Below, piece after piece: positions 25,842 through 37,423 of a DNA stretch of 64,000 nucleotides; the stretch's first letter is position 1, and the number at the start of each line of letters is the position of its first letter. The DNA is from Hymenobacter glacieicola (GTDB lineage Bacteria > Bacteroidota > Bacteroidia > Cytophagales > Hymenobacteraceae), in NCBI RefSeq assembly GCF_014640315.1, contig NZ_BMGS01000002.1, positions 95,263 through 159,262 on the forward strand, written 5' to 3'. The notes under the pieces are model-generated. The model was given only the letters and a program-made list of their open reading frames with translations, searched no databases and was not told the DNA's origin. The position numbers and the translations under genes are program-made.

Positions 25842-25935
25842 TTTTTATACAGAGGCGTGGAGAGACAGGCTCGACGAAACGCCGGCAACCTTCAGTAATC
25901 AACTGAAACGGTGCCAACTCCTGACCATATAAAAA
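25842..25935 (+). ncRNA. SAM-I (S-box) riboswitch
   Basis: All core S-box parts are visible. P1 is a perfect 8-bp helix (25842-25849 with 25928-25935). P2 pairs GGCGT with ACGCC. The conserved GGCAACC is at 25884-25890. P3 pairs TTCAGT with ACTGAA. GGTGCCAACTCC closes the core. S-box RNAs bind S-adenosylmethionine and usually switch sulfur and methionine genes off. The operon behind it encodes an ATP-grasp protein and a flavin monooxygenase. The untranslated stretch from here to the ATG is about 400 nt. Confidence 0.93.
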
Positions 25936-26331: not shown

Positions 26332-27366
26332 ATGTCACAGCACGTGAAGCCGATTGGCATTTATTTCGAACACCCCGAGTGGTTTAAGCCCCTGTTTGCC
26401 GAGCTGGACCGCCGCGGCCTGCCCTACGAGAAAATTGACGCCGCCCACCACCTCTTCGACCCCTCGGAAACCGCGAGCCGCTACGCGCTGGTCGTGAACC
26501 GCATGAGTTCTTCGGCCTACCTGCGCGGCCACGGCCAGGGCATCTTCCATACGGCCGGCTACGCAACCCACCTGGAGCGCATCGGCACCCGCATCATCAA
26601 CGGCTCGGCGGCGACGGCCATCGAAACCAACAAGGCCCGGCAGCTCAGCCTGTTTGCTTCGCTGGGGCTGAAATTCCCGAAGTCCTTCGTAATTAACCAC
26701 GCCTCCCGCGTGCCCGACGCGGCCCGCCAGCTGCAGTTCCCCATCGTGGTGAAAGTGAACATCGGGGGTAGCGGCGCCGGCATCATCCGCTTCGATACCA
26801 TCGAGGGGGTAGAAGCCGCCGTGGCCGCCGGGCAGATTGACCTGGGCATCGACCAGACGGCTCTGGTGCAGGAGTACGTAACGCCCCGGGGCGGCCACAT
26901 TCACCGCGTGGAAACCCTCAACGGCAAGTTCCTCTACGCCATGAAGGTGTACACCACCGGGGAGAGCTTTAACCTGTGCCCCGCCGAAATCTGCCAGATT
27001 CCGGAGGAGCCCGCCGCCGGTGATTTCTGCCTCACCGAGGCCCCCAAGAAGGGCATTCAGGTGGAAGCCTTTACCCCGCCCGCGGAGGTAGTAGAAGCCG
27101 TGGAGCGCATTGTGGCCGCCGCTAAAATCGACGTGGGTGGCATCGAGTACCTCATTGACGACCGCACCGGCGACGTGCTATTCTACGACGTCAACGCCCT
27201 GTCCAACTTTGTGGCCGACGCCGTGAACGTGGTGGGCTTCGACCCCTACGCCCGCTTCGTGGACTACCTCGAAACCCAGATTGGCGCCCCGAACCCCGGT
27301 AGCCAGCCGGTGTCAGCAGAAGCCGTATCCTCCACCCCACAGCCGGTAGCGGCTTCTATTCACTAA
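26332..27366 (+). CDS. ATP-grasp ligase, RimK-like
   Basis: 344 residues. ATP-grasp signatures: FPIVVKVNIGGSGAGIIRF (nucleotide loop), TALVQEYVTPRGGHIHRVE (adenine/hinge), FLYAMKVYT, and YLIDD...VLFYDVNALSNF with the Mg-binding Asp and Asn. The N-terminal IGIYFEHPEWFKPLFAEL is a Rossmann-like pre-ATP-grasp domain. Such enzymes join a carboxylate to an amine or thiol through an acylphosphate. It is the first gene behind a SAM riboswitch and is separated by 3 bp from a flavin monooxygenase gene, so a role in sulfur or methionine-related metabolism is inferred. The substrate is unknown. Confidence 0.82.
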   Translation: MSQHVKPIGIYFEHPEWFKPLFAELDRRGLPYEKIDAAHHLFDPSETASRYALVVNRMSSSAYLRGHGQGIFHTAGYATHLERIGTRIINGSAATAIETNKARQLSLFASLGLKFPKSFVINHASRVPDAARQLQFPIVVKVNIGGSGAGIIRFDTIEGVEAAVAAGQIDLGIDQTALVQEYVTPRGGHIHRVETLNGKFLYAMKVYTTGESFNLCPAEICQIPEEPAAGDFCLTEAPKKGIQVEAFTPPAEVVEAVERIVAAAKIDVGGIEYLIDDRTGDVLFYDVNALSNFVADAVNVVGFDPYARFVDYLETQIGAPNPGSQPVSAEAVSSTPQPVAASIH

Positions 27367-27369
27367 GCC

Positions 27370-28395
27370 ATGCGGTACGGATATTGGATGCCCGTTTTCG
27401 GCGGGTGGTTGCGCAACGTAGAGGACGAAAACATGCGCGCCGACTGGGACTACGTGAAGACGCTAGCCCAGCGCAGCGAGGATCTGGGCTACGACCTCTC
27501 CCTGATTGCCGAGCTGAACCTCAACGACATCAAAGGCGAGGAAGCGCCCTCCTTGGATGCCTGGAGCACGGCGGCGGCCCTGGCGGCCGTCACCAAGAAA
27601 ATTGAGCTGATGGTGGCCGTGCGCCCTACCTTCCACTCCCCGGCCCTGCTAGCCAAGCAGGCCGCCAACATCGACCACATCAGCAACGGGCGCCTGAGTT
27701 TGAACGTGGTGTCGTCGTGGTGGCAGGATGAGGCCAAGAAGTACGGCGTGCACTTCGAGCAGCACGACGACCGGTACGCCCGCACTGCCGAGTGGCTGCA
27801 CGTGGTCGACAACCTCTGGAAGCAGGACCACTTCTCCTTCGAGGGCAAGTTCTACAAGGTCACCGATTCGATTCTGCAGCCCAAGCCCGTGTCGCGCCCG
27901 CGGCCGTTCATTTACGCCGGCGGCGAATCGGAGGCGGCCAAAAACCTGATTGCCGCCCAGTGCGACGGCTACGTGATGCACGGCGACGAGCCCGCCGCCA
28001 TCGGCCGCCGCATCCAGGATTTGCAGGAGCGCCGCGACCGGCTGGGCCTACCCCCCATGAAGTTCGGGGTGGCCGCCTACAGCATCGTGCGCAACACCGA
28101 AGCCGAGGTAAAAAAAGAGCTGGAGCGCATCACCAACGTGCAGGGCTCGGCCGCCGGCTACAAGAACTACCAGCAGTGGCTGGCCGGCACCCAGCTCGAA
28201 AACCAGGTTTCCTTGCAGGATTACTCCGTGTCGAACCGCGGCCTGCGCTCCGGCCTCACGGGCACGCCCCAGCAAGTGGCCGACCGCATCGGCGCCTTCG
28301 AGGACGTGGGCGTGGACCTGTTCCTGCTCCAGTGCAGCCCCCAGTTGGAAGAAATGGAGCGGTTCTCGGAAGCTGTAATCCAGGTGCTGGCGTAA
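27370..28395 (+). CDS. Luciferase-like flavin-dependent monooxygenase, SfnG/SsuD-like
   Basis: 341 residues of the bacterial luciferase (LLM) family. It starts RYGYWMPVFGGWLRNV and has NGRLSLNVVSSWWQDEAKKYG, the EHDDRYAR-like segment (EQHDDRYARTAEWL), LQPKPVSRPRPFIYAGGES and GTPQQVADRI. These match dimethylsulfone and alkanesulfonate monooxygenases, which use FMNH2 and O2 to release sulfite from organosulfur compounds. No flavin reductase gene is next to it. Control by a SAM riboswitch supports a sulfur-scavenging job. The prophage is inserted 5 bp after the stop, so the operon's own terminator is now at 63921. Confidence 0.85.
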   Translation: MRYGYWMPVFGGWLRNVEDENMRADWDYVKTLAQRSEDLGYDLSLIAELNLNDIKGEEAPSLDAWSTAAALAAVTKKIELMVAVRPTFHSPALLAKQAANIDHISNGRLSLNVVSSWWQDEAKKYGVHFEQHDDRYARTAEWLHVVDNLWKQDHFSFEGKFYKVTDSILQPKPVSRPRPFIYAGGESEAAKNLIAAQCDGYVMHGDEPAAIGRRIQDLQERRDRLGLPPMKFGVAAYSIVRNTEAEVKKELERITNVQGSAAGYKNYQQWLAGTQLENQVSLQDYSVSNRGLRSGLTGTPQQVADRIGAFEDVGVDLFLLQCSPQLEEMERFSEAVIQVLA

Positions 28396-29790: not shown

Positions 29791-30000
29791 ATGACAAAAG
29801 AGAAGCAAAGCCAGTCCGAAAAACTCCGTGAATACGGGGTCACGCTGGCATACCTAGCCCGCTTCGCTAGCCGCACTGTAGGGTATGTGAAGCTGTGGTC
29901 AAGCGGCCAAGAAAAGAGCAAGCATCTGGATGAGAAAGCTGCTGAACTGATTCAAAACCGTCAGGCTGAATTGGCTGCCGAACTAGCTAAAGGCAAATAA
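29791..30000 (+). CDS. Small Ner-position regulator
   Basis: 69 residues from ATG 29791. It is charged, with a helical region EYGVTLAYLARFASRTVGYVKLWSSG (split: YGVTLAYLARFASRTVG then YVKLW) that could be a helix-turn-helix, and a long C-terminal helix. It holds the place of Mu ner between the repressor and the transposase. Its stop overlaps the transposase start (TAATG), so the two are translationally coupled. Ner-like repression of early genes is inferred from position and size only. Confidence 0.55.
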   Translation: MTKEKQSQSEKLREYGVTLAYLARFASRTVGYVKLWSSGQEKSKHLDEKAAELIQNRQAELAAELAKGK

Positions 30001-32186
30001 TGAAGCTAGTTGGTGCCATATTGTACGTTGAGTTCAGCGACCTGAAAGCCGTTGGGGTTTCAGAAAGCTACTTGACGAAAGTAACCTCGGTGGCGCGGAA
30101 GGATGGCGCGTCATCGTGGGTCAACATCCCTAACCCCGAGCGTAAGCCAGGGGAAGGGAAAGTGCTGATTCAGTACGACACCATCCCGGCTTCTACTCGG
30201 GCCAAACTACCGGCCAAAAACGTCCTGCTTCAGCAGCTGGCTGATGACAACCAGCAGCAACAGCGCGAAGCTCAGGAACAAATACTGCGGGGGCTGCTGC
30301 CGCCCGCATCAGCTGAAGACTTGGCTACCCTGCGGGAATACCGCATCACTCGGGAATCAGTAGACCTAGGCACGGGTGAAGCCCTGAAAAATGAACTGTC
30401 TGGCCTGCCTGATACGAAGCTGCGGGCCGCTGTCCTGGCTTGCCGGTGGTTGGCTCTGATGAGTTCGCCCCGCTGGAAGAGCAAGGCTACTCGGGTGAAG
30501 CTCAACCCCGACTTTGCAAAGCTCAGTGATATGCAAATGGCCTGCGTGGCTGTGTATAGTGCTGATGGGGTTGACCTGCCTACGTCGTATTCCAAGGTTC
30601 AGGCAAAGCTGCGGGAATATGAAGAGAATGGGGCGCTGGCTGTAGTGCCGCGCCAATTCGGCAACGTGAACAGCCGGAAGATTGCAGAAGAGCAGTTGGA
30701 AACCCTGATTCAACTGTACTCCGATGCCCGCAAACCTAGCTTTGAGCTGGTGCATCGGTGGTACACGGAAGTGGTAGACAAACGCCGTGAACTTGGGCTG
30801 GAACTGTGGCCGGAAGTAACGGTGGGCACCGTGAAAAACAACCTGATGCTGCCCGATGTGCAGCCGGTTTGGTATCTGCCACGGCATGGCTTCAAAGCCT
30901 GGAAAGAGCGGTATGAATACACCATGCTGCGCCACCGTCCGACCTTCCGGGATGCCCTGTGGGTAGTCGATGGAACGAAGGTGAACTACTACTACCGCAC
31001 GGCTAAGGGGGTAGCGGCTAAGCTTCAGGTTATTGCTGTGATTGATGCCCACTCTGACTACTGGTTGGGCTGGGAATTCTGTGAGCAGGAAGATTCGGAT
31101 GCCGTAGGCCGGGCGCTTCGTGCAGCCCTGCGCACGGCTGGGGGCGTGAAGCCCTGGCAGGTTCAGTACGATAATGACCGTTCTAACCTCAAATTCTTCG
31201 CGAATTGGGCGGGCTTACACTTCCCCGCAATGCCCAATAACGGCCAATCAAAGGTCATTGAACGGGCTTTAGGGGCGCTGCAACAGCATGTAATGCGCCG
31301 CCATCGGTCCTTCACTGGCCAGAACATCACGGCCACCAGCCTGGCAGGTAAGGCCAACCCGGAACTGCTGCGCGAACTGGTGAAGGAAGGGGCGCTGATG
31401 AGCCTGGAAGAAACCATGCGGGAAGCCTCGCTGGACTTCCATGCCTGGAACAACATGGTCAGCAAGAAAGACGGGAAAACTCCGAAGGAACGCTACCTGG
31501 CTAGCCAGCACCCGGAAACCCGGTCCTACTTCACAGAAGAAGACGAAATGGAAACCTTCTGGAAGTGGAATGACCAGCTGATTACCTACCGCAGTGACGA
31601 GTTGCGCATGGTGAAAAGCCGCATCAGCAACCACTACGAGGTAGTAACAGAGCTACCCGGCCCGGTGCCTGGCACCATGACTAAAGTGCCGGACCTGGAC
31701 TTCCATATGCGCAATGTAGGTCAGCGGTTTTGGGTCAAGTATGACCCTGAGCAGGCAGCACCTACCCGCGTGGCTCTCTTCCTCGGGGAAGATAAACGCT
31801 TCGTGGCGTGGGCTGACAACAAGGAAGCTATGCCGGGTGCCTTGGTGGACTACCAGGAAGGCAGCCGCGCCGCCATCAATGCCCGCCTGGCAGCTAAGAA
31901 AGAACAGCGGGCGCAGACTGCGGAACGCTTGGCCAACATCACGGAACGCCTGGACGCGGAAGAGCTGGTGAAGCTAGGTCATGAGTTCGTGCCGAAAGAT
32001 GCCCTGAACGCAGCACAAGCTGATTTAGAAGCTGAAGACGAGGTGCAGGTTACCATCAACCGCCGCCCTGAGCGCAGCAATACCCTAGTACTCTCCCCGG
32101 CTATGGCAGCTGCTACGGAAACCCCGGATGCCATACGACAAGCCCGGTGGGCGCGAATGCAGCAACAGGCTGAAGACGAAGACTAA
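30000..32186 (+). CDS. MuA-like transposase
   Basis: 728 residues. The N-terminal part (1 to about 300) should bind the end sites; the retroviral-integrase-type core lies at about 315-500. Candidate DDE residues are D324 in LWVVDGTKVNY, D391 in QVQYDNDRSN and E421 in GQSKVIERALGALQQHV. The C-terminal basic and coiled part (RLAAKKEQRAQTAERLANI) would contact MuB or ClpX as in Mu. It catalyses strand transfer for integration and replicative transposition. It follows the Ner-like gene with a one-base overlap. Confidence 0.92.
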   Translation: MKLVGAILYVEFSDLKAVGVSESYLTKVTSVARKDGASSWVNIPNPERKPGEGKVLIQYDTIPASTRAKLPAKNVLLQQLADDNQQQQREAQEQILRGLLPPASAEDLATLREYRITRESVDLGTGEALKNELSGLPDTKLRAAVLACRWLALMSSPRWKSKATRVKLNPDFAKLSDMQMACVAVYSADGVDLPTSYSKVQAKLREYEENGALAVVPRQFGNVNSRKIAEEQLETLIQLYSDARKPSFELVHRWYTEVVDKRRELGLELWPEVTVGTVKNNLMLPDVQPVWYLPRHGFKAWKERYEYTMLRHRPTFRDALWVVDGTKVNYYYRTAKGVAAKLQVIAVIDAHSDYWLGWEFCEQEDSDAVGRALRAALRTAGGVKPWQVQYDNDRSNLKFFANWAGLHFPAMPNNGQSKVIERALGALQQHVMRRHRSFTGQNITATSLAGKANPELLRELVKEGALMSLEETMREASLDFHAWNNMVSKKDGKTPKERYLASQHPETRSYFTEEDEMETFWKWNDQLITYRSDELRMVKSRISNHYEVVTELPGPVPGTMTKVPDLDFHMRNVGQRFWVKYDPEQAAPTRVALFLGEDKRFVAWADNKEAMPGALVDYQEGSRAAINARLAAKKEQRAQTAERLANITERLDAEELVKLGHEFVPKDALNAAQADLEAEDEVQVTINRRPERSNTLVLSPAMAAATETPDAIRQARWARMQQQAEDED

Positions 32187-32193
32187 AAACAAA

Positions 32194-32222
32194 CCCGCCC
32201 CACGGGTGCAACCGGGGGCGGG
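32194..32222 (+). terminator. GC hairpin between transposase and MuB genes
   Basis: An 8-bp stem CCCGCCCC (32194-32201) with GGGGCGGG (32215-32222), 8 bp after the transposase stop. No T tract follows. It may lower transcription into, or stabilise, the MuB part of the message. Confidence 0.5.
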
Positions 32223-32258
32223 CTCAATTCAAATACTCACTCTTAACACTCAAAAGTA

Positions 32259-33161
32259 ATGCTGGAATCACAGAAAGAACAAATTGCTCAGGCACTGGAC
32301 GAGTACATGAAGGTGCATGATGTAAGCCAGAACAAGGTTAGCAAGGGCTCTGGTGTATCCGCTGGCTACGTGTCGCAAATCGTGAAGCGCAAGTGGAATG
32401 AAGTGCCTGTAGCGGATGGTAAAACCATATCAATAGGTGACAGCCACTTCCGCAAGCTTCAGGCTTACATGGGCCTGAGCCTGGACGTGTTCCAGACCAA
32501 GAACTTCATGGATGTGCAGATTGCTCTGGATGATGCCCGCCGTACCGTGGCGTACTACATCATTGATGGCGACACGGGCGCAGGTAAAACCTTCGCAATT
32601 ACCGATTACGCCCGCAAGCACTCAGCTACTACCTACGTGGTGAAGTGCTCCAACGCTATGACCGCTACCCAAATGGTGCGGGCTATTTGCCGGGAAGTAG
32701 GTGTGGGCGAACTCGGGGCTACGGGTGCTGTGGAAGACCGCATCAAGGCCATCGCCACCAAGATGAATCGTGAACAGGCGCTGCTGGTGTTCGATGAATC
32801 GGAAACGATGGTGAAGAAATCTCGGGCTTTCGGCTACATCAAAGACCTGTATGACCGGGTGGAAGGTCGCAGCAGCATTGTGATAGCCGGGGCCAATGGC
32901 TTCCTGGATAAGCTGCGCCAAAAGGCCAATTACAATGTAGAGAGCTTCCCGCAGGTGGTGCGCCGCTTCGCTGCCAACCCGGTCATGCTCAGTGGTGGGG
33001 TGGATATGCAGGATGCCATTGACATCTGCGCTGCTCATGGCATTACGAGCAAAAAGGAAGTGGCCGTGCTAGTAGCTGCTAGCCCCAATTACGGCACCCT
33101 CTTCAGCAAGCTGAAGAAGCTGAAAGCTGACCAGGAAATCCTGGCCACCGCCAACGCCTAA
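32259..33161 (+). CDS. MuB-like transposition ATPase
   Basis: 300 residues. An N-terminal DNA-binding helix-turn-helix (VSQNKVSKGSGVSAGYVSQI) precedes an AAA+ domain with Walker A GDTGAGKT at 104-111 and Walker B LLVFDESE at about 175-182. The C-terminal small helical domain is like MuB. It should bind target DNA, deliver it to the transposase and give target immunity. It lies in the order expected for Mu, 72 bp after the transposase gene. Confidence 0.9.
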   Translation: MLESQKEQIAQALDEYMKVHDVSQNKVSKGSGVSAGYVSQIVKRKWNEVPVADGKTISIGDSHFRKLQAYMGLSLDVFQTKNFMDVQIALDDARRTVAYYIIDGDTGAGKTFAITDYARKHSATTYVVKCSNAMTATQMVRAICREVGVGELGATGAVEDRIKAIATKMNREQALLVFDESETMVKKSRAFGYIKDLYDRVEGRSSIVIAGANGFLDKLRQKANYNVESFPQVVRRFAANPVMLSGGVDMQDAIDICAAHGITSKKEVAVLVAASPNYGTLFSKLKKLKADQEILATANA

Positions 33162-33164
33162 GCC

Positions 33165-33377
33165 ATGCAAACACTAGAGCTAACCGAAATCCAAGGATGG
33201 GTACTGCCGGACATGACCCGCAAATACCACTACTACGCAGGTTCCAACACCAGCCTATGCGGTGGATACGAAGCGACACCAGAGCAGCTACAGGATGCTT
33301 ACGACAACAACCACAAGTGCGCTGATAACTGCGCCGCCTGCCAACGCAAACGCCTTCAACTACAGCAAAATGGGTAA
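33165..33377 (+). CDS. Small Cys-rich protein
   Basis: 70 residues, starting 3 bp after the MuB stop and overlapping the next gene by 8 bp, so it is part of the early operon. Four Cys (32, 52, 56, 59) in C-x19-C-x3-C-x2-C could form a zinc site. There is no recognisable family. Function unknown. Confidence 0.7.
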   Translation: MQTLELTEIQGWVLPDMTRKYHYYAGSNTSLCGGYEATPEQLQDAYDNNHKCADNCAACQRKRLQLQQNG

Positions 33378-34023
33378 CCTGATTTCAGCTCACACGGTCC
33401 TGAAGAATAAGTACAAGACCATTGACCTACCTGAGCCGTGGCCGAAGTACATCGGGATTCCTGAAGAGAACTTCCGCATGATTGTCTACGGGCCTTCGGG
33501 CTCGGGCAAAACCACCTTCGTGATGAAGCTCTGCAAAGACCTCACTGAGCTAGGCAAGGTGTACTACAACAGCTCAGAACAGGGGGAAGGCAAGAGTATC
33601 CAGGACAGCTTCAACCGCTGTAACATCCACGAATGCCCCAAAGGAAGCTTCATGCTCGGGGACCGGCATACCTACCAGGAAATGGTGGAAGTCCTGAGCA
33701 AGAAGCGTAGCGCCCCCTTCGTGGTCATTGATTCGCTTCAGTACATGAACCTGACCAAAGGCCAGTATCAGGAGCTGATTGAACGGTTCCCGCGCAAAGC
33801 CTTCATCATCATCAGCTGGTCAGCTGGGGCTACCCCGAAAGGGGAACACGCGAAGGGCATTGAATACATGGTGGACATCAAAACCTACGTGGCAGACGGG
33901 GTAGCCATCAGCAAAAGCCGCTTCGGAGCTACTGAGCCCTACGAAGTTTACCCGCCCCGGCAAACGAAGCCTGCGAAGGTCAAGGAATCCGGTCAACAGC
34001 TAAGCCTGATTGAGAATGGGTAA
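33370..34023 (+). CDS. RecA/RadA-like P-loop ATPase
   Basis: 217 residues from ATG 33370, the start that leaves only 8 bp of overlap with the preceding gene. Walker A is YGPSGSGKTTF (about 40-50), followed by a DnaB/RadA-like strand GKVYYNSSEQGEGKSI and Walker B FVVIDSLQYM. The C-terminus AKVKESGQQLSLIENG is unstructured and ends in a QxSL.-type motif that resembles a sliding-clamp binding peptide. A second ATPase beside MuB is not found in Mu. A role in recombination or in replicative transposition is inferred. Confidence 0.7.
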   Translation: MGNLISAHTVLKNKYKTIDLPEPWPKYIGIPEENFRMIVYGPSGSGKTTFVMKLCKDLTELGKVYYNSSEQGEGKSIQDSFNRCNIHECPKGSFMLGDRHTYQEMVEVLSKKRSAPFVVIDSLQYMNLTKGQYQELIERFPRKAFIIISWSAGATPKGEHAKGIEYMVDIKTYVADGVAISKSRFGATEPYEVYPPRQTKPAKVKESGQQLSLIENG

Positions 34024-34405
34024 GCCGCTAAAGCCCAAAGATGCTGTGACAATCACGGCGAAAAACAGGGTCCGCATCCGGCTGGAAGGCACAGGCCCGA
34101 AGGAAGCCTACGATGCCATGATTCGCTACCTGGACATGGTGAATCCGGTTCTGGCCACCAATAAGAAGGGCATTACCGCAGACACTGCCAGCGTGTACGA
34201 AAGTGCTTCCCTAGTCCTGGACCTGTACGAGTTTCAGATACTTCCGCAGATGCGGCTGGACGCATTGCCGGAGGTGCTGAAGCTGAATGTAACCCGAATA
34301 GAAGCCCTGCGCCTGTGGTGGCTTGCGGCATCGGACCCCACGGGAGTAGGAGAGCAAATACAATGGATTCGCGCACTGAATGAGGTGCATCAAAAACTAG
34401 GATAA
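34016..34405 (+). CDS. Hypothetical early protein
   Basis: 129 residues from ATG 34016, which overlaps the last codons of the ATPase gene. It is mostly helical (EAYDAMIRYLDMVNPVLATN, RIEALRLWWLAASDPTG). It ends in TAATG, overlapping the next start by one base. No family recognised. Tight coupling suggests a function with the ATPase. Confidence 0.7.
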   Translation: MGKPLKPKDAVTITAKNRVRIRLEGTGPKEAYDAMIRYLDMVNPVLATNKKGITADTASVYESASLVLDLYEFQILPQMRLDALPEVLKLNVTRIEALRLWWLAASDPTGVGEQIQWIRALNEVHQKLG

Positions 34406-34821
34406 TGAGCTGGGCACAAGAACTAAAACAGAAGAATGAGCGCACGGAACGCCGGATGCTGCTACTACTCGGGGTAGACCTGGATTGGCTGACTTGGCTG
34501 CGGATGGAAAACATGGTGGCGTGGCTCTGCAAGGAATACGGGGATGGTAGCTACCGCAATGCCATAGCCTCTTCCCCCGAGTTCAAGACGTGGTGGCTGG
34601 CACAGTGGGCAAGTAGGGACGCCGCCCTGAGCAGTCGGATAAAGGTGCTGAACACGGGGGTGATGACCCACAGCGTCAGCCCCGACACCACCCACTTCAT
34701 TCATGAGCAGGAGGAATTCAGGGAACTGTACGTGGCCTACCACGACCCGCTGAAGATGACCAAATACCCTGACCGGGAAATCATCAACGAAATCATCAAG
34801 ACAGCCCGCAAAGCTGCATAG
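34405..34821 (+). CDS. Hypothetical early protein
   Basis: 138 residues, start overlapping the previous stop by one base. Trp- and acidic-rich helical protein (LLGVDLDWLTWLRMENMVAWL, given here as the first long helix in two parts: LLGVDLDWLTW and LRMENMVAWL). No family recognised. Its stop codon TAG (34819-34821) lends its last G to the tRNA-like hairpin that starts at 34821. Confidence 0.7.
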   Translation: MSWAQELKQKNERTERRMLLLLGVDLDWLTWLRMENMVAWLCKEYGDGSYRNAIASSPEFKTWWLAQWASRDAALSSRIKVLNTGVMTHSVSPDTTHFIHEQEEFRELYVAYHDPLKMTKYPDREIINEIIKTARKAA

Positions 34822-34861
34822 CCTGGATGGTCAGCGCCGGGGTTCGACTCCCCGGCCAGGC
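34821..34861 (+). ncRNA. tRNA-like minihelix 1 (acceptor plus T-arm mimic)
   Basis: Outer helix GCCTGG/CCAGGC (34821-34826 with 34856-34861). A 10-nt bulge on the 5' side (34827-34836, starting ATGGTC). Inner helix CCGGGG/CCCCGG (34837-34842 with 34850-34855). Loop TTCGACT (34843-34849), an exact T-loop (TTCRANY). The outer and inner stems stack to 12 bp, the length of acceptor plus T stem in tRNA. There is no anticodon or D arm and no CCA. It lies directly after one stop codon and 44 bp before the Gam-like gene. A second copy is at 35941. Confidence 0.75.
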
Positions 34862-34905
34862 GCTACAGAGTACGCATTTCACCATTTAAACCCCATTCAA
34901 AACCT

Positions 34906-35394
34906 ATGGCAACTACTGCCCAAACCCCGACCACCCGCACGGCCAAAGCTTCCGGTTCCAGGAAGGTGGCCGAAAAACAGATGGACCGCTATGCTGAGTT
35001 GGCCGCGCAGCTGGTGGAAGCAAAGGACGCCTACGAAGCCACCATCAAGCCTCTGACTGATGAAATGGCTGACCTGAAGGTGAAGCTGAATAAGTGGGCT
35101 ACAGACAACCCTGAGGAATTCAAAGGCCAGAAGACGCTGAAGATGGAAGGTGGCGTCCTGGGCTTCAAACTCGGGGCTAAAGCCATCAGCTTTCCCCTAG
35201 ATGCACCAGCTGATATTCAGAAGAAGTACCTAGGCATTGTGAAGAAGGGGCTGCCTGAGGCCATCACGGAAAGCGTTGACGCCAGAACGCTCATTGGTGC
35301 CCTGCCTGCCTTCCCAAACGTTGCCAGCCAGTTGCTGAAGCTTGGCATTTCGATAAAGCAGCCGGACAACTTCTTCATCACACCAAAAAAGTAA
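34906..35394 (+). CDS. gam: Mu Gam-like host-nuclease inhibitor
   Basis: 162 residues, usual for Mu Gam. A coiled N-terminal helix (EKQMDRYAELAAQLVEAKDAY, centred on residues 22-45) leads to a compact beta-containing part (ALSFPL-like region KAISFPLDAP, then the helical GIVKKGLPEAI). This resembles the Gam family, whose dimer covers DNA ends against RecBCD-type exonucleases and is related to Ku. The start follows a 44-nt leader after the tRNA-like element. Confidence 0.75.
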   Translation: MATTAQTPTTRTAKASGSRKVAEKQMDRYAELAAQLVEAKDAYEATIKPLTDEMADLKVKLNKWATDNPEEFKGQKTLKMEGGVLGFKLGAKAISFPLDAPADIQKKYLGIVKKGLPEAITESVDARTLIGALPAFPNVASQLLKLGISIKQPDNFFITPKK

Positions 35395-35397
35395 CTG

Positions 35398-35604
35398 ATG
35401 GAGAAAGGCCAGAAGGTACGTGTGATTCGCGGGCTGTATGCTGATAGCAATGTAGTAGTAGACCGGCCCCACGACAGCTTCCCCAATTTCTACTGGTGCA
35501 TGGTTGAGCGGATGGTAACAAGGTGGAAGCGCGGAAAGAAGGTGCTAGTACCTGGTGAACCACAGGAAGCACTGCTGAACGCTGGCCAGATAGAGAAACG
35601 ATAA
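35398..35604 (+). CDS. Hypothetical small basic protein
   Basis: 68 residues, 3 bp after gam. The start EKGQKVRVIRGLYADSNVVV looks like a small beta-barrel (KOW or SH3-like) segment. The rest is basic (RWKRGKKVLVP). No family recognised. Confidence 0.65.
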   Translation: MEKGQKVRVIRGLYADSNVVVDRPHDSFPNFYWCMVERMVTRWKRGKKVLVPGEPQEALLNAGQIEKR

Positions 35605-35615
35605 AAAATAGACCA

Positions 35616-35933
35616 ATGGAATTAAGTCTTTCACAAGCTCAGGCCATATATGAACAGGCTGAAGCACATAAGGAAATCATTCAAGAGGTGTTGCTAGAGC
35701 GGGTAAGGCAGGATAATAAGTTCGGCCCGCAAAACCGCCCACCTTTTGAGTGGAAAATCATTCTGGACGAAGAGGTGGGCGAAGTCTCACATGAGGTATG
35801 CGAAGTGTACTTCCGAGGTGAAGAATTCAGCGACAAATACCGCAAAGAACTGGTGGAGGTAGCGGCTGTGGCTTTGGCAGCACTACAGAATTATGACCAG
35901 CGGGCAGCTGCTGCCAGCAGCTCTAATTCCTAA
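35616..35933 (+). CDS. MazG-like NTP pyrophosphohydrolase
   Basis: 105 residues, all helical. The motif DEEVGEVSHEVCE followed by KYRKELVEVAAVALAAL fits the EExxE...ExxD-like metal site of the MazG/all-alpha NTP-PPase family, which hydrolyses nucleoside triphosphates or (p)ppGpp. In phages such enzymes are thought to adjust nucleotide pools or the stringent response. The second tRNA-like element starts 8 bp after its stop. Confidence 0.65.
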   Translation: MELSLSQAQAIYEQAEAHKEIIQEVLLERVRQDNKFGPQNRPPFEWKIILDEEVGEVSHEVCEVYFRGEEFSDKYRKELVEVAAVALAALQNYDQRAAAASSSNS

Positions 35934-35940
35934 CTCCCCA

Positions 35941-35979
35941 CCTGGATGGTCGCAGCATGGGTTCGACTCCCATGCCAGG
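35941..35979 (+). ncRNA. tRNA-like minihelix 2 (acceptor plus T-arm mimic)
   Basis: Outer helix CCTGG/CCAGG (35941-35945 with 35975-35979), 10-nt bulge (35946-35955, again starting ATGGTC), inner helix CATGGG/CCCATG (35956-35961 with 35969-35974), T-loop TTCGACT (35962-35968). Compared with copy 1, two inner pairs change on both sides (C-G to A-T and G-C to T-A), so the helix is kept while the sequence varies. It sits between the MazG-like gene and the small gene at 36008. Confidence 0.75.
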
Positions 35980-36007
35980 GGCAACAACCGATTTAACATC
36001 CACTCTG

Positions 36008-36202
36008 ATGCACTGCTACAGCGTCACAATTCATCCAGTGGGACTATGCCCACTAATCCAGTTCGGCCCAATACGGCTTGAATTTCGGGGTAATCCGGGC
36101 TTGTCTCGGGGCAACATAGTAGAGCACTGCCAGGCCATCTATGGCGCTGAGTGCTGGAAAGTGGGCTACATCCGCAATAACTCTTTAGCTGAGATTCTAT
36201 AA
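36008..36202 (+). CDS. Hypothetical small protein
   Basis: 64 residues from ATG 36008. Its stop overlaps the next start by one base (TAATG), the same coupling used by other genes of this operon, which supports translation. Sequence MHCYSVTIHPVGLC...ECWKVGYIRNNSLAEIL has no recognisable family. Confidence 0.6.
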   Translation: MHCYSVTIHPVGLCPLIQFGPIRLEFRGNPGLSRGNIVEHCQAIYGAECWKVGYIRNNSLAEIL

Positions 36203-36627
36203 TGCTTATCAAACCCTGGCAGAACAAGTATCTGCATAAGCTTCTGAATGACCTGGACTTGATGGACGTGAAAAAGGAGCTGGTAGCCAGCTTCAGCGGC
36301 AAAGGTTCGGAGAGCAGTAAAGACCTTCACTACACAGAAGCGGACAGCCTCATCAAGTACCTGGAACGGCAATCCTCGGGCGCACTGCCTACCCCTGAAG
36401 AGGAAGAAGCCAGCGACAAAATGCGCCGCAAAATCCTGAGCCTGGCCCACGAAATGCAGTGGGAACTGGATAATGGTAAAGTGGATATGGCCCGTGTGAA
36501 CGCTTGGTGTCAATCAAAAGGCTTCGGGAAGAAAGTGCTCAATGACTACAACCATGACCAGCTAACGAAGCTGGTTTCCCAATTCAAAATCGTCCACAAA
36601 AAACACCTTCAGGAGCTACAGAAATGA
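36202..36627 (+). CDS. Mu gp16/GemA-like regulatory protein
   Basis: 141 residues. The C-terminal half (MRRKILSLAHEMQWELDNG ... CQSKGFGKKVLNDYNHDQLTKLVSQF) resembles the gp16/GemA family (DUF1018) of Mu-like phages: an R-K-I...A-x-E-x-x-W helix followed by a short helical pair. The N-terminal half is extra and unlike Mu. A role in early gene regulation is inferred. Confidence 0.55.
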   Translation: MLIKPWQNKYLHKLLNDLDLMDVKKELVASFSGKGSESSKDLHYTEADSLIKYLERQSSGALPTPEEEEASDKMRRKILSLAHEMQWELDNGKVDMARVNAWCQSKGFGKKVLNDYNHDQLTKLVSQFKIVHKKHLQELQK

Positions 36628-36797
36628 AAAAGCAACTCATCAAAACCATCCTTAAAGCTGATTCGGGTAACCTCTTTGCTGACTTTGATAGCACAGCTCA
36701 GGTTAAGGATTTTTTGAATCAGCAGAATGAAGCCTTTCTGCGCGGTATAGTCGCACGGTGCAACATCAGCATTGACAATGAAAACGGCCATCTATAA
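36624..36797 (+). CDS. Hypothetical 57-residue protein
   Basis: ATG 36624 overlaps the previous stop (ATGA-type, 4 bp) and the frame runs to TAA 36795-36797, overlapping the next gene by 20 bp. Translation starts MKKQLIKTILKADSGNLFAD and ends CNISIDNENGHL. The reverse strand also has an open frame here, but coupling and direction favour this one. No family recognised. Confidence 0.65.
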   Translation: MKKQLIKTILKADSGNLFADFDSTAQVKDFLNQQNEAFLRGIVARCNISIDNENGHL

Positions 36798-37368
36798 ACT
36801 GACCTCAAAGAAGATTGCGGGCGGGGCCATCTACGTGAGCTACCGCCTGGGCAAGCTGCAAGCCCTAGACCTGGCAGATGCGCAGCCTACCCCTGAACAG
36901 GTTTCCTACCTGCTGATGATACTTCCCCCGGTGGAAAACGCACTACAGGTAACGGATTGGGGTAGCATGGTAGTAGTGCCCATTCCCGAGCGCACAGTAA
37001 AGGATAAGATAAAGCTGTTTTGCGCGGCCTTTAAAGACTACCGGAAGGTGACCTACCAGCCAACGCAGACGGAAGCCAGCAACATCCGCACGGTGCCGGT
37101 CAGCCAGGAGCTACTGACGGTCTTCTTTGAAACCGGCTTGCTGGACTATAGCATCCGCAACTACATAGCCCGCATCAACACCACTCGGGACATCCTGAAG
37201 AATGGCCGCAACATCAAAGAACGCTTTCCCGCAGGCTATGACCGGGACTTCTACAACTCCCTTTCTGGTGAACGTCTGGTGGAGTATAAGCGCCACCTGA
37301 GGGACAATGGATGGGTGTATGATGGGAAGCTTCAGACCTGGAAAGAAGCCCCTAACTTGTCCAGATAG
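36778..37368 (+). CDS. Hypothetical early protein
   Basis: 196 residues from ATG 36778. It is an alpha/beta protein with IRTVPVSQELLTVFFETGLLDY-type helix (near residue 108) and a Trp-rich C-terminus (NGWVYDGKLQTW). No family recognised. It is the last gene before a terminator-like hairpin, so it closes the early operon. Confidence 0.7.
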   Translation: MKTAIYKLTSKKIAGGAIYVSYRLGKLQALDLADAQPTPEQVSYLLMILPPVENALQVTDWGSMVVVPIPERTVKDKIKLFCAAFKDYRKVTYQPTQTEASNIRTVPVSQELLTVFFETGLLDYSIRNYIARINTTRDILKNGRNIKERFPAGYDRDFYNSLSGERLVEYKRHLRDNGWVYDGKLQTWKEAPNLSR

Positions 37369-37393: not shown

Positions 37394-37423
37394 CATTTCG
37401 GAGCCTATAAAGGCTCCGAAATG
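37394..37423 (+). terminator. Hairpin at the end of the early operon
   Basis: A 12-bp perfect stem (37394-37405 with 37412-37423) and 6-nt loop, 25 bp after the early operon's last stop. The T tract (TTTT) is four bases after the stem. Confidence 0.65.

What the first reader, a model, noticed from the sequence alone, without database searches (positions are those of the whole stretch)
34821..35979. Two covarying tRNA-like minihelices (acceptor plus T-arm) between early phage genes
At 34821-34861 and 35941-35979 the same structure appears. It has an outer 5-6 bp helix CCTGG/CCAGG, a 10-nt 5' bulge starting ATGGTC, an inner 6-bp helix, and the exact tRNA T-loop TTCGACT. The stacked helices give 11-12 bp, the acceptor plus T-stem length measured by RNase P and RNase Z, and the layout resembles minimal model RNase P substrates. 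Two inner pairs change on both strands between the copies, which argues for selection on the RNA fold rather than duplication noise or decayed tRNA genes. Both copies sit immediately behind stop codons in one operon. Possible roles: mRNA cleavage sites that use the host tRNA-processing enzymes, RNA end protection, or a decoy for T-loop modifying enzymes.
Basis: partly seen in the sequence, partly recalled or inferred. Interest (0 to 1): 0.85.

Follow-up and report, generated by a model that had tools for sequence, protein, structure and literature searches.

The report
tRNA mimics between phage genes
Tiny tRNA look-alikes, about 41 bases long, sit between genes of this prophage and of many other phages, where the bacterium's own tRNA-trimming enzymes are predicted to mistake them for tRNAs and would cut the phage's long messages into pieces.

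Summary
Both elements are as described, including two pairs changed on both strands. They belong to a widespread phage RNA family that Rfam 15 does not recognise and that ten searches of an open-access paper library did not find described. A structural scan of 246 fetched viral loci gave 329 distinct non-tRNA copies against 1 hit in reversed sequence. The fold is an acceptor plus T-arm stack of 11-12 bp with a T-loop and a D-loop-like linker carrying GG. In one variant (153 copies) two contacts not used to find them covary: a pair inside the linker and a pair from linker to T-loop. C74 is kept in 287 of 311 copies, usually without CCA; the host's own tRNA genes do the same, 35 of 35 with C74 and 8 of 35 with CCA. 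In parts of eight annotated phages 35 of 36 elements are intergenic, all 35 on the strand of the next gene. Best reading: minimal tRNA mimics punctuate phage operons, likely cut by RNase P, perhaps with a 3' tRNA nuclease. Cleavage is untested.

The parts
34821..34861 (+). element 1: acceptor 5' strand 34821-34826, D-loop-like linker 34827-34836, T-stem 34837-34842, T-loop 34843-34849, T-stem 34850-34855, acceptor 3' strand 34856-34861
   Evidence: sequence; model R1 59.2 bits (it is one of the 50 model sequences); 12 bp
34862..34863 (+). N73-C74 equivalent (GC) of element 1
   Evidence: sequence; same rule as host tRNA genes
35940..35980 (+). element 2: acceptor 5' strand 35941-35945, linker 35946-35955, T-stem 35956-35961, T-loop 35962-35968, T-stem 35969-35974, acceptor 3' strand 35975-35979; 35940/35980 an A.G mismatch
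   Evidence: sequence; model R1 59.9 bits (also one of the model sequences); 11 bp
35981..35982 (+). N73-C74 equivalent (GC) of element 2
   Evidence: sequence
34405..34821 (+). ORF upstream of element 1 (138 aa, no Pfam or PHROGs match); its stop codon overlaps base 1
34906..35394 (+). Mu Gam-like gene downstream of element 1 (start 42 nt after C74)
   Evidence: PF07352 E 5.9e-12, phrog_491
35616..35933 (+). ORF upstream of element 2 (105 aa, phrog_2831, unknown function)
35957..36202 (+). small ORF downstream of element 2; its first ATG lies inside the element, the in-frame ATG at 36008 is a likelier start (by eye)
30000..37368 (+). early region of the Mu-like prophage (transposase, MuB-like ATPase, ATPase, Gam, GemA) that holds both elements
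   Evidence: phrog_310, phrog_296, phrog_6891, PF07352, PF06252

Best explanation
The two elements are minimal tRNA mimics, an acceptor and T-arm stack of 11-12 bp with a D-loop-like linker, placed between genes of a phage operon, and the host's tRNA-processing enzymes, RNase P first, likely cut the operon's message there. Shown by sequence and comparison: the fold and its covariation, two covarying contacts of the linker in one variant, the tRNA-gene-like N73-C74 end, and the intergenic position on the strand of the next gene, often just behind a stop codon. Inferred: RNase P reads the T-loop, the D-loop-like GG and the 12-bp ruler and would cut just 5' of base 1, leaving the next cistron with a 5' end closed by a tight helix; a 3' tRNA nuclease (RNase Z or an exonuclease) may also cut behind base 73 or 74. 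In several actinophages a small hairpin follows at once and would guard the new 5' end. The outcome would be tRNA punctuation of the operon, as in animal mitochondria, done with tRNA stubs in place of working tRNAs.
For: Covariation: in A1 (50 of the 52 rows of one spacing class; 2 rows with poor pairing dropped) 9 of 12 pairs change on both sides, 182 double-change cells against 48.7 shuffled, score 0.807 against 0.164 shuffled and at most 0.168 slid; in A2 (53 rows; complete pairing there is by selection) 178 against 47.0, 0.848 against 0.177. Linker contacts not used in selection, 153 copies: linker 2 with 8 Watson-Crick in 150 (70.6 permuted), linker 9 with T-loop 60 in 136 (88.8 permuted); permuting only within a locus, 115 and 105 of 118 against maxima 95 and 87. 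C/U-G-G in 297 of 312 linkers, 109 shuffled. C74 287 of 311, G1-C72 237 of 311; the same C74-without-CCA habit in 88 of 112 CCA-less phage tRNAs and 35 of 35 host tRNAs. Position: 26 of 27 and 9 of 9 intergenic, all 35 on the strand of the next gene; 21 of 35 begin -1 to 10 nt behind the upstream stop; stop triplets peak 9-13 nt before base 1 (189 summed over those five positions in 311 copies). Neighbouring copies on one strand in 169 of 170. Not terminators: TTTT within 10 nt in 3 of 312. [quoted passage not shown]
Against: No RNA-end or cleavage data. C75 is rare (23 of 311), whereas the RCCA pairing of RNase P would favour it. No GGU partner could be identified in the P15 region of this host's RNase P RNA (inconclusive). 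Pairing of base -1 with 73 is not avoided (46 of 139 against 34.2 permuted), so the helix end is not strictly defined. In the window, copy 2 lacks the 1-72 pair and copy 1 has C opposite T-loop 60; no hairpin follows either copy (0 and -2.1 kcal/mol). Many gaps in the same operons have no element. A few copies lie in cellular-looking contigs.
Confidence: 0.57

Rival explanations
1. The functional cut is on the 3' side only (RNase Z type): the element stays as a stable 3' cap on the upstream message, and the downstream message starts with the small hairpin.
For: C75 and CCA are rare (23 and 9 of 311), as expected if CCA blocks RNase Z (recalled). The 35 nt after C74 fold better than mononucleotide shuffles (-9.1 against -6.2 kcal/mol, 302 copies), first pair mostly 0-4 nt from C74.
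Against: It does not need the conserved C74. Downstream windows are only modestly better than coding windows (-7.4); the hairpin is absent behind both window copies.
Confidence: 0.14
2. The element is not cut: the tight helix shields mRNA or works on translation, for example by acting on the ribosome that has just ended at the stop codon.
For: Many copies begin within 10 nt of a stop codon (21 of 35) and stop triplets peak at 9-13 nt.
Against: A mere barrier needs neither T-loop, GG, linker-to-T-loop pair nor C74, all of which are kept.
Confidence: 0.15
3. A decoy for tRNA-modifying enzymes or for tRNA-cutting defence or toxin proteins.
For: Authentic T-loop and elbow-like linker; up to 13 distinct copies in one locus.
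Against: A decoy need not sit in gene gaps behind stop codons on the coding strand; no anticodon arm for anticodon nucleases to cut.
Confidence: 0.07
4. Decayed tRNA genes or chance repeats.
For: Some copies keep longer linkers with an extra hairpin, like shrunken tRNAs (by eye; 16 of 329 with linker 21-30).
Against: Covariation within single loci, 1 hit in reversed sequence against 470; a shuffled-linker pattern found 0 stretches where the real one found 46.
Confidence: 0.02

Closest known systems
tRNA punctuation of animal mitochondrial transcripts
   Same: tRNA-shaped units between genes of a polycistronic message (recalled; searches lists reviews, not read)
   Different: there the units are working tRNAs; here stubs without anticodon arm, in phages; cutting not shown here
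Model RNase P substrates (acceptor stem + T-stem + T-loop hairpins)
   Same: 11-12 bp stack, T-loop, similar size (passages of PMC11143913)
   Different: natural, with a D-loop-like linker on the 5' side and C74 without CCA
mascRNA / menRNA (RF01684)
   Same: tRNA-like 3D unit in a long transcript; best sub-threshold Rfam match (19.4 bits)
   Different: below the 42.5-bit cut-off; mascRNA has D- and anticodon-like stems and lies in nuclear lncRNAs (recalled)
C4 antisense RNA of phages P1/P7 (RNase P substrate)
   Same: a phage transcript cut by RNase P (named in PMC11143913, passages)
   Different: single locus, not an intercistronic family; no comparison of folds was made here
tRNA-like domain of tmRNA
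   Same: acceptor and T-arm with a D-loop and little or no D-stem (recalled)
   Different: no tag reading frame; ARAGORN finds no tmRNA in the window
Short repeated intergenic motifs of actinophages (SAS/ESAS, EC/EI motifs, EG inverted repeats)
   Same: repeated in small gaps of operons (passages of PMC7302621)
   Different: other sequences, in the passages seen not described as tRNA-like

Membership tests
tRNA gene (RF00005) | cloverleaf with anticodon arm, found by tRNA programs | tested here: not met
   no ARAGORN gene and no Rfam match at either element; no anticodon arm in the sequence
mascRNA-menRNA (RF01684) | score at or above the family cut-off | tested here: not met
   19.4 against 42.5 bits
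RNase P substrate (works like) | about 12 bp from T-loop to the 5' end of base 1 | tested here: met
   12 and 11 bp in the window; 11 or 12 bp was a condition of the wide scan, but 70 of 106 pattern hits found without that condition had 12 or 13 bp and 12 more had 11
RNase P substrate (works like) | T-loop and D-loop G19 equivalent | tested here: met
   T-loop in both copies (required in all scans); C/U-G-G in 297 of 312 linkers, not required in that scan
RNase P substrate (works like) | 3' RCCA pairing with GGU of the RNase P RNA | tested here: inconclusive
   C74 kept, C75 not; host tRNA genes alike; GGU not identified in host RNase P RNA
RNase P substrate | cleavage by RNase P | not testable with these tools
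   no RNA data
tRNA punctuation | units between genes on the coding strand | tested here: met
   35 of 36 intergenic, 35 of 35 on the strand of the next gene
tRNA punctuation | mRNA ends at the units | not testable with these tools
   no RNA data
intrinsic terminator | run of T behind the hairpin | tested here: not met
   TTTT within 10 nt in 3 of 312 copies
Mu-like phage (context) | transposase, MuB, Gam, GemA in order | tested here: met

The most novel reading that the evidence does not exclude
A previously undescribed RNA family, shared by phages of distant bacterial groups, turns phage operons into tRNA-punctuated transcripts: stripped-down tRNAs (two helices, T-loop, a D-like loop docked on the T-loop by its own base pair, N73-C74) sit in many gene gaps so that host RNase P and its partners cut out single-gene messages with ready-made ends. 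It would be the first bacterial-virus counterpart of mitochondrial tRNA punctuation, and a natural minimal RNase P substrate.
Probability: 0.5. Interest if true: 0.93.

Novelty: new variant of a known kind. Interest (0 to 1): 0.88.

Why it matters
tRNA mimicry is known from RNA viruses, tmRNA and mascRNA; here it appears as a small, repeatable, unannotated element in operons of DNA phages that infect distant hosts (Mycobacterium, Gordonia, Streptomyces, a Bacteroides phage and this prophage). If cleavage is shown, it explains how long phage operons are turned into separate messages, gives a natural minimal substrate for RNase P, and fills gene gaps that the records examined leave blank. The family is defined tightly enough (covarying pairs, linker-to-T-loop contact, C74) that one 5'-end map of an infected culture would decide the question.

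Tried and rejected
Folding energy as proof: not significant. Rfam: nothing at cut-off in the window but a SAM riboswitch elsewhere, and no match at all over 123,936 bases that hold about 46 elements. A covariation of host RNase P loop L15 with base 73 was considered and dropped: the loop could not be aligned. Avoidance of -1:73 pairing was tested and not found. A phage-only distribution was considered and softened: of 7 genome-collection stretches, L133 lies by an integrase and L135 by a phage primase-polymerase, while L136 (and its sister L132 in the same MAG) lies behind an RTX-type gene beside an acyl-CoA dehydrogenase, L137 by a trypsin-like gene, L131 and L134 are unclear. My early note that every gap holds an element is wrong: in the leftward operon of Endor1, 8 of 12 gaps of 57-189 nt do, and several gaps of Konstantine, MakoManhole, Kumao and BF1-TP2 do not. 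The simple ORF caller is unreliable in high-GC loci and was not used for counts. Rows dropped: 1 pattern hit at a locus edge and 19 repeats (126 to 106); 2 of 52 from A1; for A2, at most 2 per locus were taken of 153 copies (95), the first 60 were printed, and I left out 7 of those by hand as near repeats or to spread the loci (53 used).

Papers: ten searches gave listings with abstract starts; passages only were read in PMC7302621, PMC10276819, PMC7650747, PMC11143913 and PMC4810235. None of what I saw describes these elements; preprints and most subscription papers are not held.

Full report
1. What is there. The window lies in G000:C2:95263-159262 and holds a Mu-like prophage with transposase, MuB-like ATPase, a second ATPase, Gam and GemA. 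Element 1 (34821-34861) lies between a 138-aa ORF and Gam; element 2 (35940-35980) lies behind a 105-aa ORF. Counted from the T-loop the 3' strand runs 12 nt, then N73 and C74; both copies read G-C there. Folding energy is unremarkable, Rfam and ARAGORN are silent at the elements, and a permissive Rfam scan gives mascRNA at 19.4 bits.

2. The same thing in related prophages. Of 120 same-genus genomes, 6 hold the neighbouring ATPase (own included). Four relatives with enough downstream DNA all carry elements (L155 1, L156 1, L157 2, L158 2); the fifth (L159) stops too early. The gap between the 138-aa gene and Gam holds one in the window, L155, L156 and IMG/VR L160, although the flanking 138-aa proteins are only 22-40% identical. 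L156 changes the outermost G-C to T-A on both strands. For L155 the script printed another pairing; the GCCTGG...CCAGGC form was read by eye.

3. The same thing in other phages. A tight form found 46 stretches there, a form with the 5' half shuffled found 0, and the tight form found 7 in the 257-Gb genome collection. Model R1 finds copies in 2 of 59 relatives (own and G031), 2 of 395 genomes of the same phylum (own and G130, a 27.5-bit match not followed up) and 2 of 200 of an actinobacterial order whose centre holds one (stricter filters). Named carriers include Mycobacterium phages Konstantine, Indlulamithi, HINdeR and Journey13, Gordonia phages Morgana and MakoManhole, Streptomyces phage Endor1 and Bacteroides phage BF1-TP2. 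BLAST also listed real tRNA genes and weak matches, which I do not count.

4. Anatomy. Besides the ATGGTC linker there are others: ACTGGCAGACA and its relatives, AACGGTTTTCG, and rarer ones. A structural scan that asks only for T-loop, 11-12 bp and a linker of 6-30 nt finds 470 hits in 246 viral loci (2,333,879 bases), 12 over ARAGORN tRNAs, 329 distinct others, against 1 hit in reversed sequence. The loci were fetched by their elements, so this is no estimate of frequency; but 173 of the 329 contain none of the three search words, and 155 of these have C74. Linker lengths pile up at 10 and 11 nt (276 of 329).

5. Covariation. A1 and A2 show compensatory change in nearly every pair. Full pairing in A2 is by selection; the kinds of pair are not. 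In 153 copies with 11 bp and an 11-nt linker, mutual information picks out two contacts the scan did not use: linker 2 with 8, closing a 5-nt loop that holds GG, and linker 9 with T-loop 60, seen as A-T, G-C, C-G and T-A. When T-loop 60 is not T (30 copies), linker 9 is its Watson-Crick partner in 29. Permuting only among copies of one locus, which keeps relatedness, never reaches the observed counts in 5000 trials. The AACGGTTTTCG class is an exception (T opposite T, 15 copies), and window copy 1 has C opposite T. So the unit is a folded tRNA-like elbow with its own extra contact, in at least one variant. Model R2, made from IMG/VR copies without the window genus, finds elements of two same-genus prophages at 57.1 and 55.2 bits, and window element 1 at 26.8 bits.

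6. The 3' end obeys tRNA-gene rules. C74 stands in 287 of 311 core copies, C75 in 23, CCA in 9; G1-C72 in 237. Among 112 CCA-less phage tRNAs of the same loci C74 stands in 88 and C75 in 14. In the window's own genome 35 of 35 distinct tRNA genes (from 30 loci of 43 tRNA matches) have C74 but only 8 have CCA. I read this as the same selection acting on tRNAs and mimics; which enzyme imposes it is not shown. Base -1 differs: A in 188 of 311 copies, T or C in 30 of 35 host tRNAs.

7. Place in the operon. In parts of seven annotated phages (165,777 bases) a scan with GG required gave 27 hits, 26 intergenic, 0 in reversed sequence; Endor1 gave 9 of 9. All 35 are on the strand of the next gene; 21 begin -1 to 10 nt behind the upstream stop, most end 33-55 nt before the next start. 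In Endor1's leftward operon 8 of 12 gaps of 57-189 nt hold one, and another precedes the first gene. In Konstantine, Morgana, Indlulamithi and Endor1 a small hairpin often follows directly (by eye; statistics), but not in the window.

8. Mechanism. [quoted passage not shown] The elements keep these features and sit where a cut would separate two cistrons. I therefore favour cleavage 5' of base 1 by RNase P, with a possible 3' cut, giving tRNA punctuation. Against it stand the missing C75, the unplaced GGU partner, the lack of -1:73 avoidance and, above all, the lack of RNA data. RNase Z alone, a purely structural role, and a decoy are the rivals.

9. Novelty. Not a member of the tRNA or mascRNA families (tests not met). 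It works like, but is not shown to be, tRNA punctuation. Ten paper searches and Rfam 15 gave no description. I rate it a new variant of a known kind (tRNA mimicry), with a bold reading as a new RNA family of phage operons.

Noticed in passing
window 25842-25935 (+): SAM riboswitch (RF00162, 77.6 bits) ahead of a 344-aa ORF (26332-27366) and a 341-aa ORF (27370-28395); their families were not searched.
   Followed up: no
window 37395-37421: Inverted repeat ATTTCGGAGCC...GGCTCCGAAAT just behind the last early ORF, without a T-run on the + strand (by eye).
   Followed up: no
L136 1115-1160 and L132 3127-3172: Two strong elements (62.6 and 63.2 bits) in one actinobacterial MAG; the L136 copy lies 14-20 nt behind an RTX-type gene and ahead of an acyl-CoA dehydrogenase, which suggests rare cellular use.
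   Followed up: partly
L125 2310-2460, L127 1948-2077, L143 (Morgana): Longer-linker forms with an extra middle hairpin, possible intermediates between a tRNA and the minimal element (by eye).
   Followed up: no
L019 and L047: An element with a 10-bp-class short linker whose 3' end reads ...CTTACC-G-CCA, i.e. a full CCA, identical in two viral contigs of 173 and 417 kb.
   Followed up: no
L140 (MakoManhole), minus strand 2984 and 3102: Two near-identical elements in one 351-nt gap, embedded in GGCAAGGC-like repeats that recur around elements in other contigs.
   Followed up: no
viral loci, base -1: A precedes base 1 in 188 of 311 elements, unlike the T or C before host tRNAs; no explanation.
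   Followed up: partly
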